This document shows, one piece after another, positions 1 to 1,180 of a stretch of 64,000 bases of DNA (positions are counted from its first letter, which is position 1; every line of letters begins with the position of its first letter). The stretch comes from Vulcanimicrobiota bacterium. Its GTDB lineage: Bacteria; Vulcanimicrobiota; Vulcanimicrobiia; Vulcanimicrobiales; Vulcanimicrobiaceae. A model generated the notes under the pieces. It was not told where the DNA came from. It worked only from the letters and a program-made list of their open reading frames with translations, and did not search any database. The position numbers and the translations under genes are program-made. The stretch covers positions 1 through 64,000 of the forward strand of contig DAIDGX010000019.1 of assembly GCA_027452165.1 (NCBI GenBank), in the 5' to 3' direction.

Positions 1-8
1 CCCAGCCA
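1..8 (+). tRNA. 3' terminus of a tRNA cut by the window edge (probably tRNA-Gln)
   Basis: Only CCCAGCCA is in the window. The same eight bases at 229-236 follow a recognisable T-arm, so this is most likely the acceptor end, discriminator G and CCA of a complete tRNA gene lying to the left. The identity (Gln) rests on the acceptor strand CACCCCA plus discriminator G seen in the second copy. It cannot be proven without the anticodon. Confidence 0.5.
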
Positions 9-50
9 AAACAGCAAAGACCGGGCATTGCCCGGTCTTTGCTGTTTTCA
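9..50 (+). terminator. Intrinsic-terminator-like hairpin after the tRNA end, copy 1
   Basis: A perfect inverted repeat pairs 8-27 with 29-48, a 19-20 bp stem closed by a minimal loop, GC-rich at the top and ending in TTTT. It begins directly at the tRNA CCA end, as expected for the terminator or processing hairpin of a tRNA transcript. Confidence 0.7.
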
Positions 51-151
51 GCCGGTATGAAGGGTGTCGGCGGAGTCAAAGTCCGCTGCCTTACCGCAGT
101 GGAGGCGCGCAGCGCCGGAACGGAATGTTCGGGAGCGCGCCTCCGCCATGG

Positions 152-194
152 ACCGGCAGGATGCCGGTATGGGAACGCAGCGACAGGATGTCGC
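152..194 (+). ncRNA. Pair of GGA-loop hairpins, CsrA/RsmA-site-like, copy 1
   Basis: Two perfect hairpins each present GGA as the triloop: 152-168 (stem ACCGGCA/TGCCGGT) and 180-194 (stem GCGACA/TGTCGC). The core of the second, ACAGGATGT, matches the published CsrA SELEX consensus ACARGGAUGU. An outer stem 171-178/199-206 encloses the second hairpin. Structured RNAs with repeated GGA loops typically sequester CsrA/RsmA. Whether this region is transcribed, and whether the host has CsrA, is unknown from this window. Confidence 0.4.
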
Positions 195-199
195 GGTGG

Positions 200-236
200 C
201 GTTCCCGCGTTGGTTCGAATCCAGCCACCCCAGCCA
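200..236 (+). pseudogene. Partial tRNA gene, 3' half only (Gln-like)
   Basis: The sequence contains a T-arm, GTTGG-TTCGAAT-CCAGC, followed by the acceptor strand CACCCCA, discriminator G and CCA. No matching 5' acceptor strand (TGGGGTG), D-arm or anticodon arm exists upstream. Those positions are occupied by the GGA-loop hairpins of the repeat. This is a tRNA tail carried along in a tandem duplication and not a functional tRNA. The acceptor and discriminator fit tRNA-Gln best. An alternative is a phage-type attachment-site duplication, but no integrase lies beside it. Confidence 0.7.
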
Positions 237-278
237 AAACAGCAAAGACCGGGCATTGCCCGGTCTTTGCTGTTTTCA
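237..278 (+). terminator. Intrinsic-terminator-like hairpin after the tRNA end, copy 2
   Basis: Second, identical copy of the long hairpin, with arms 236-255 and 257-276, again starting at a tRNA CCA end (234-236). Confidence 0.7.
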
Positions 279-379
279 GCCGGTATGAAGGGTGTCGGCG
301 GAGTCAAAGTCCGCTGCCTTACCGCAGTGGAGGCGCGCAGCGCCGGAACGGAATGTACGGGAGCGCGCCTCCGCCATGG

Positions 380-422
380 ACCGGCAGGATGCCGGTATGG
401 GAACGCAGCGACAGGATGTCGC
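380..422 (+). ncRNA. Pair of GGA-loop hairpins, CsrA/RsmA-site-like, copy 2
   Basis: Same two hairpins as in copy 1, at 380-396 and 408-422. The outer stem cannot form here because the repeat is cut at 429, before the 3' arm. Confidence 0.4.
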
Positions 423-430
423 GGTGGCGG

Positions 431-1180
431 TTATGTTATCGTGCGGATCGTCCAGAGGTCGAACGTGAGCTCGGGGTTCGTGATGTAGGCGTAGGGCATG
501 GTGAAGTAGCCGTTCAGACCCCAGGCCGGCCCTTCGGAGTTCAAGATCAGAAACGTTTGCGTTGCATCATCGTAGCCGGCCGCCATGACGGCATGGCCAC
601 CGATGATCGTATCGCTTGATGCGGGCATCGGCAGATGCCCCGTTGCGGTGGCGGTTTCGCAGGGGCCACGATAGATCTCGACACCGAACACGAAGGGAAA
701 ACCTTCGGCGAGGCACGCTTTTGCGTGGTCGAGCTCCTGGGGAACGCGTGCGTACGTCACGGCGTGCAGCGTCGCTTGTGCATAGCACGCCGGTGGCGGT
801 GCATCGGCGAATTTTGTCACGTCGTAGGGCCAGAGGACTTCATCGCAGGTTCCGGTTGCGTTCAACGTCTTGATCGCGTTACGCATCGGCACCGGCGCGT
901 TCTGGGTTTGCAGATCGGCCAGCGCACGCGCGTTGTAGTAGAGAAAAAGGCGCGACGGCGGCACGAGCGCGCGCTGTGCCTTTTTTTCGAGAACGGTGAG
1001 TGCCGATGCAAGCGCGTGCGCGCTGCAACTCATGAGGTTTCCCTGGGTGTATACTTCGCCGCAATACGCGCGCAGATCGGCACTCGATGGAAGTGCCTTC
1101 GTGCGCGATTCGTACGTGTGGTCGCGTGGGTCGTGCGCGTCGCGCTGGGTCGCATAGTGGGCGTATGGTGTGGTTGCCAT
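431..1180 (-). CDS. Papain-like (C1A family) cysteine protease, cytoplasmic
   Basis: The 249-residue protein has the papain catalytic plan: oxyanion Gln46 and nucleophile Cys52 in QGNLMSCSAHA, general base His196 in GGHAVMAAGYDD, and Asn214 in NSEGPAWGLNGYF, which corresponds to the NSWG..W...GY block of papain. No signal peptide and no inhibitory propeptide precede the mature domain. The protein would therefore be cytosolic and active as made, unless it is exported by another route. The Trp that normally follows the catalytic Cys is Ser here. The gene is divergent from the DUF1835 gene, and its stop codon lies directly next to the truncated tandem repeat, so its native C-terminus may have been altered at that join. 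The family call is firm from the motifs; the substrate is unknown. Confidence 0.8.
   Translation of the reverse strand: MATTPYAHYATQRDAHDPRDHTYESRTKALPSSADLRAYCGEVYTQGNLMSCSAHALASALTVLEKKAQRALVPPSRLFLYYNARALADLQTQNAPVPMRNAIKTLNATGTCDEVLWPYDVTKFADAPPPACYAQATLHAVTYARVPQELDHAKACLAEGFPFVFGVEIYRGPCETATATGHLPMPASSDTIIGGHAVMAAGYDDATQTFLILNSEGPAWGLNGYFTMPYAYITNPELTFDLWTIRTIT

What the first reader, a model, noticed from the sequence alone, without database searches (positions are those of the whole stretch)
1..429. tRNA-linked tandem repeat resembling an rtT-type locus
Sequence shows a 228-bp period in which each unit starts with the 3' end of the same tRNA, then a perfect long hairpin, then a series of smaller hairpins, ending in a second partial tRNA tail. 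E. coli tyrT carries three 178-bp repeats each starting with the tRNA-Tyr tail and giving a stable RNA (rtT). A comparable arrangement on a Gln-like tRNA in this type of genome would be a new instance. The unit is far more structured than an ordinary duplication.
Basis: partly seen in the sequence, partly recalled or inferred. Interest (0 to 1): 0.68.

Follow-up and report, generated by a model that had tools for sequence, protein, structure and literature searches.

The report
Tandem mobile hairpin element at tRNA-Gln
The 228-base repeat is a tandem copy of the end of a glutamine tRNA gene joined to a worn copy of a small hairpin-rich mobile element that, in one family of uncultured bacteria, inserts beside or inside RNA genes; it is not an E. 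coli-type rtT RNA gene, but the element family behind it appears undescribed.

Summary
Window 1-429 is a 228-bp direct repeat (200/201 identical where both copies exist) at the very start of a contig, with a 30-nt tRNA-Gln tail, a perfect hairpin and further strong structure. An intact tRNA-Gln(UUG) with the same hairpin and unit start lies at the end of another contig (C21), so an array after tRNA-Gln is likely, though the join is not assembled.

The rtT reading is not supported: no Rfam RtT hit, no E. coli match, a terminator-like hairpin after every tail.

Relatives show what it is. At least 13 genomes of the same family carry tRNA-Gln-tail repeats of 153-228 bp, most with a shared hairpin core. 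A covariance model of that core finds ~90-105-bp copies ("E": three hairpins) in 64 of 99 family genomes: after tRNA-Gln, Ser, Leu, Val, Ala and Arg, in two rnpB helices, at gene ends, in both orientations, with empty sites in relatives, and none in 50 other genomes of the phylum. Insertion beside tRNA genes usually duplicates the gene's 3' end exactly at E's 3' boundary.

The window unit is a degenerate E plus duplicated tRNA-Gln end, amplified in tandem. The mobilising enzyme is unknown.

The parts
1..8 (+). last 8 bases (CCCAGCCA) of a tRNA-Gln 3' tail; contig start cuts the rest
8..48 (+). perfect 20-bp-arm hairpin AAAACAGCAAAGACCGGGCA-T-TGCCCGGTCTTTGCTGTTTT, probable bidirectional terminator of tRNA-Gln; the copy after the intact tRNA on C21 differs by a compensatory pair (C/G for A/T)
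49..68 (+). spacer, also present after tRNA-Gln on C21
69..97 (-). inverted copy of tRNA-Gln bases 15-43 (D loop to anticodon arm), 100% identical
   Evidence: same placement in relatives
91..150 (+). degenerate copy of element E (hairpin B retained, hairpin C lost), model R1 44.3 bits, E = 1.6e-8
141..150 (+). bases 37-46 of the duplicated tRNA-Gln (CTCCGCCATG), left part of the interrupted copy
   Evidence: direct comparison
151..206 (-). second hairpin module (F) interrupting the duplicated tRNA copy; two hairpins with AUCCUG loops on the minus strand, resembling Rfam Bacillaceae-1 RNA (29.3 bits, below the gathering score 35)
207..236 (+). bases 46-75 of tRNA-Gln (T arm, acceptor strand, CCA): duplicated 3' end
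236..276 (+). second copy of the terminator-like hairpin
297..325 (-). second inverted copy of tRNA-Gln 15-43
319..378 (+). second degenerate E copy (R1 44.1 bits, E = 1.9e-8)
379..429 (-). second F module, truncated at the end of the array; a peptidase-like ORF 431-1180(-) has its stop codon right at the array edge

Best explanation
The array is a by-product of a small mobile hairpin element. (1) An element of a family-wide interspersed repeat family, here called E (~90-105 nt: GGGGNCCCC-hairpin A-GGGGG, GCGCGCAG-hairpin B-GGAGTGCC, TTTTAAA, GGGGTCCCC-hairpin C-GGGG), inserted at the tRNA-Gln(UUG) gene. (2) The insertion left the gene whole: the gene's 3' end is present both before E and directly after it, and an inverted copy of the gene's middle lies on E's 5' side. 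(3) In this genome's lineage E lost hairpin C and a second hairpin module inserted into the duplicated tRNA copy. (4) The duplicated tRNA end gave direct repeats, and unequal recombination or slippage between them multiplied the block into the 228-bp array, which broke the assembly at this contig's start. Shown: anatomy, E family, dispersal, empty sites, duplication at the boundary. Inferred: order of events and amplification by recombination. Unknown: the enzyme that moves E and how the long duplications and inverted copies arise. The array itself probably has no dedicated function beyond terminating tRNA-Gln transcription.
For: Core of the window unit matches R1 at E = 1.6e-8. Units in relatives align with the same order: inverted tRNA piece, hairpin B, hairpin C, tRNA tail. 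R1 hits in 64/99 family genomes and R2 (full E) in 42 genomes, all in this family, none among 50 other genomes of the phylum searched. E sits after tRNA-Gln, Ser, Leu, Val, Ala, Arg and at fliG and cysS ends with the duplicated gene end starting within 9 nt of E's 3' end. rnpB: E in P12 in several genomes, in the P3 region with P12 empty in G100 of the same genus. Empty sites for two E insertions of G053 in G038, G000, G001 and G002. Both orientations relative to genes. Covariation: 11 of 23 pairs with both-side changes in 38 copies. Tandem copies including flank also at rnpB of this genome, and after tRNA-Ser and tRNA-Leu of others.
Against: No mobilising enzyme found: Y1_Tnp in 4/99 and RVT_1 in 11/99 family genomes, neither in this one. 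Target duplications vary from 9-14 to ~60 bp and are not detected at many intergenic sites, unlike ordinary transposons. The window copy is degenerate and its hairpin C cannot be recognised. The join between C21 and C19 is not assembled. The E-like leader before infB is conserved across two genera, so some copies may have been kept for a function.
Confidence: 0.76

Rival explanations
1. rtT-like locus: the repeats are co-transcribed with tRNA-Gln and each unit yields a stable small RNA released by tRNA processing.
For: Tail-bearing tandem repeats after an intact tRNA; strong predicted structure with a tRNA-like acceptor/T-arm pairing; hairpins B and C covary.
Against: No RtT match, none in E. 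coli; terminator-like hairpin between tRNA and each unit; no sigma-70-like promoter found; core shared with dispersed copies at unrelated genes in both orientations; patchy in close relatives.
Confidence: 0.08
2. Attachment-site scar: remnants of phage or integrative elements using tRNA-Gln (anticodon arm to 3' end) as attB, with attR copies accumulated in tandem.
For: Duplicated segment runs from D/anticodon stem to the 3' end in relatives (bases 21-24 to 72-75), like many tyrosine-integrase sites; inverted core at the left end.
Against: No integrase noted in the regions read beside the units and no phage match; the same core occurs at tRNAs of six specificities, rnpB, fliG, cysS and intergenic sites; duplication start varies between tRNA genes.
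Confidence: 0.06
3. E is primarily a conserved functional RNA element (leader, terminator or structural arm) spread and retained by selection; the tRNA-Gln array is a functional 3' appendage.
For: Covarying helices; conserved infB leader copy in two genera; repeated presence in RNA genes.
Against: Both orientations relative to genes, empty sites in close relatives, different rnpB helices in one genus.
Confidence: 0.1

Closest known systems
rtT / tyrT repeats of E. coli (Rfam RtT; description from own knowledge)
   Same: tandem repeats downstream of a tRNA gene, each carrying the tRNA 3' end
   Different: no sequence or covariance match; 228 bp instead of 178; terminator-like hairpin in every unit; core belongs to a dispersed element
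REPINs / REP sequences (PMC3116915)
   Same: short hairpin-forming non-autonomous elements; tandem clusters that include flanking sequence
   Different: REPINs are two inverted REPs linked to a RAYT (Y1) transposase; Y1_Tnp is absent from 95/99 genomes here, including this one; E has three hairpins and flanks duplicated gene ends
Bacterial MITEs, including Rickettsia palindromic elements (PMC10969869)
   Same: 50-500 bp, no coding capacity, dispersed, both orientations
   Different: no ordinary terminal inverted repeats recognised, long variable target duplications, no matching transposon known
Repetitive hairpin-forming elements of sponge mitochondria (PMC2800124)
   Same: hairpin elements found in intergenic regions and inside RNA genes, scattered distribution
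   Different: mitochondrial and not known to be related in sequence; no systematic duplication of gene ends reported in the passages read
STRR repeats in cyanobacterial rnpB (own knowledge)
   Same: repeats inside the RNase P RNA gene
   Different: short heptamer-type tandem repeats, not a three-hairpin mobile element

Membership tests
rtT (E. coli tyrT) | intact cognate tRNA directly upstream, repeats carry its 3' end | tested here: inconclusive
   Intact tRNA-Gln with same hairpin and unit start on C21; junction with C19 not assembled; contiguous in relatives
rtT (E. coli tyrT) | match to the Rfam RtT covariance model or tyrT DNA | tested here: not met
rtT (E. coli tyrT) | stable RNA from the repeat | not testable with these tools
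   no transcriptome; terminator-like hairpin argues against
REP/REPIN | cognate RAYT / Y1 transposase in the genome | tested here: not met
   PF01797 in 4/99 genomes, 0 in G000, G001, G002, G053
REP/REPIN | dispersed hairpin doublet | tested here: inconclusive
   dispersed yes, but three hairpins with GGGGNCCCC modules in direct order
MITE | small, dispersed, non-coding | tested here: met
MITE | terminal inverted repeats | tested here: inconclusive
   only the self-palindromic GGGGNCCCC modules, one near each end
MITE | fixed-length target duplication | tested here: not met
   9 to ~60 bp, or none detected
MITE | autonomous partner with same ends | tested here: inconclusive
   none seen among R1/R2 hits; one 1.3-kb inverted pair encloses trigger factor only
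tyrosine-integrase attachment-site scar | site-specific, integrase nearby | tested here: not met
   many unrelated sites; no integrase noted among G002 ORFs downstream (limited check)

The most novel reading that the evidence does not exclude
E is a new class of miniature mobile element in Eremiobacterota that favours structured-RNA genes and gene ends and inserts in a way that leaves the target functional by duplicating the gene's 3' end (often with an inverted copy of its middle), moved by machinery that is neither a Y1 transposase nor a recognised reverse transcriptase.
Probability: 0.35. Interest if true: 0.75.

Novelty: new variant of a known kind. Interest (0 to 1): 0.5.

Why it matters
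It gives a sequence-based explanation for tRNA-tail tandem repeats that does not need an RNA function, and it points to a small-element family in a poorly studied phylum that can sit inside RNase P RNA and next to many tRNA genes without destroying them. How long, gene-preserving duplications arise without a recognised transposase is directly testable. The rtT repeats of E. coli could be re-examined for a similar origin.

Tried and rejected
Dispersed-repeat test inside this genome with short motifs from the unit (up to 3 mismatches): nothing beyond the array except one 3-mismatch site; the relation to E became visible only with a covariance model. A viral hit for the inverted piece was simply a phage tRNA-Gln gene. 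The plasmid hit is the 33-36-nt tRNA tail. RAYT and reverse-transcriptase mobilisation were tested by family search and found poorly supported. A composite carrier element was sought at G124:C161, where two inverted E copies enclose only trigger factor. A sister family had no E. Literature searches found no description of E, within an open-access library only. The duplication control is contaminated by Gln-Gln comparisons (its 99th percentile is 100); the 95th percentile (24) was used as guide.

Full report
OBSERVATION. The window begins at base 1 of contig C19 (203,970 bp) of a 2.64-Mb, 27-contig genome. Bases 1-201 recur at 229-429, spacing 228, with one mismatch (129/357). Each copy has a perfect hairpin (8-48, 236-276). 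The stretch 1-234 folds far better than shuffles (z = -8.3). Bases 207-236 equal bases 46-75 of tRNA-Gln(UUG). The second unit ends at 429 before its tail, right at the stop of a converging peptidase-like ORF (431-1180). No intact tRNA-Gln is in the window.

WHERE THE tRNA IS. The intact tRNA-Gln(UUG) of this genome is at C21:466-540(-), near the end of another contig, followed by the same hairpin, the same spacer and the start of the unit with the inverted tRNA piece, then a different sequence. The C21 hairpin differs from the array hairpin by a compensatory change of one pair plus a loop base. In several relatives the next gene after tRNA-Gln encodes a protein like the one on C19 at 1204-2199 (read by eye), which fits C21 and C19 being neighbours; within the same genus the order differs, so this is suggestive only.

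ANATOMY OF THE UNIT. Tail end (1-8), terminator-like hairpin (8-48), spacer (49-68), exact inverted copy of tRNA-Gln bases 15-43 (69-97), a core matched by model R1 (91-150), tRNA-Gln bases 37-46 (141-150), a 56-nt double-hairpin insert (151-206), tRNA-Gln bases 46-75 (207-236). The insert resembles Rfam Bacillaceae-1 RNA on the minus strand below threshold.

RELATIVES. Searching 99 genomes of the family with tRNA-Gln shows partial second copies in many, usually bases 21-24 to 72-75, with an inverted piece of about bases 15-43 before them. Fetched loci give units of 153 (G044), 159 (G110), 161 (G049 twice, G118, G055), 163 (G127), 164 (G059), 170 (G135), 174 (G132), 175 (G130), 176 (G107), 218 (G004) and 228 bp (G002); G008 and G034 have variants with other hairpins. 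Relatives without repeats exist, some in the same genera (G001, G026, G057, G037). The shared core aligns well and has compensatory changes.

THE ELEMENT. Model R1 from the core finds matches in 64 of 99 family genomes, most of them away from tRNA-Gln. Reading them gives a full element of about 89-105 nt with three hairpins; 38 copies have 11 of 23 consensus pairs with changes on both sides. Model R2 of the full element matches 42 genomes of this family and none of the 50 other genomes of the phylum that were searched; R1 matched none of 14 genomes of a sister family. In this genome R2 hits include a tandem pair inside rnpB (C19:117538-117737), fliG, a site just before an atpB-like start, the infB leader and an interrupted tRNA-Leu-like gene (gene names other than rnpB and tRNAs are by reading the sequence). 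One named public record with an exact E motif is a Candidatus Eremiobacterota MAG; membership of the window in that phylum is inferred from this.

MOBILITY. (a) Different sites in close relatives: E in rnpB P12 of G105, G110 and G111, but in the P3 region with a short P12 in G100, all one genus. (b) Empty sites: the E copies in L181 and L182 (first copy) of G053 are missing in G038 and in genus g1, with flanks continuing. (c) Both orientations relative to flanking genes by a coding-frame heuristic. (d) Among 61 copies, 25 have a direct duplication beginning within 9 nt of E's 3' end: 11 tRNA-Gln, others at tRNA-Ser, Leu, Val, Ala, Arg, fliG (47 bp), cysS (30 bp) and a 14-bp gene start. By inspection, 30 of the 61 lie at tRNA or rnpB genes; the R1 model was trained on tRNA-Gln copies, so only the 19 non-Gln cases among 50 are informative. 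(e) Tandem units including flank occur at tRNA-Ser (L136), tRNA-Leu (L145, L187), cysS (L180, without the gene end between copies) and rnpB (L156), so amplification after insertion is a general habit.

HOW IT WORKS, AS FAR AS SHOWN. E inserts; at gene ends the target's 3' part is found on both sides, so the gene stays whole. In tRNA-Gln, Ser, Leu and fliG an inverted copy of the sequence just upstream of the insertion point lies at E's 5' side; in the tRNA cases it takes the place of hairpin A. The duplicated ends allow unequal recombination or slippage (inferred). The enzyme is unknown: Y1_Tnp is in 4/99 and RVT_1 in 11/99 genomes, neither in this one, so present-day copies may be largely immobile.

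COMPARISON. rtT: similar layout, not a member. REPIN: similar tandem clusters with flanks, but RAYT absent. MITE: size and dispersal fit, ends and target duplications do not. Phage attachment scar: duplication range fits, many unrelated sites do not. No description of E was found in the open-access library searched, which is incomplete.

VERDICT. Real and explained at the level of anatomy and origin; the rtT claim is not supported; the element family is the more interesting finding, with its mechanism open.

Noticed in passing
G000:C19:117538-117737 (L156): The RNase P RNA gene of this genome carries two tandem E copies with flank in its P12 region and is still recognised as class A (228.7 bits).
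   Followed up: partly
L182:560-960; L194-L197; G000:C26:112986-113087: An E-like leader directly before infB is conserved across two genera, so some copies may be domesticated.
   Followed up: partly
G000:C26:169450-170200 (L154): E lies within a long insert interrupting a tRNA-Leu-like gene; it looks like a group I intron but Rfam gave no intron hit.
   Followed up: partly
window 153-211 and 381-439, minus strand: Double hairpin resembling Rfam Bacillaceae-1 RNA (29.3 and 25.8 bits, gathering 35); a related module without the AUCCUG loops is at tRNA-Gln of G034.
   Followed up: partly
G030:C106:36131-36160: A duplicated 5' part (bases 1-30) of tRNA-Gln lies upstream of the intact gene, the mirror of the 3' duplications.
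   Followed up: no
L054, L055, L062, L067, L068: c-di-AMP riboswitches lie roughly 0.7-1.3 kb from tRNA-Gln in several relatives.
   Followed up: no
L225 (G112:C170): A ~55-bp target duplication with internal inverted ends flanks an E copy that lacks hairpin C.
   Followed up: no
G000:C21:1-382: After the truncated unit C21 continues into an unrelated sequence rather than the C19 flank; strain mixture or a second junction.
   Followed up: no
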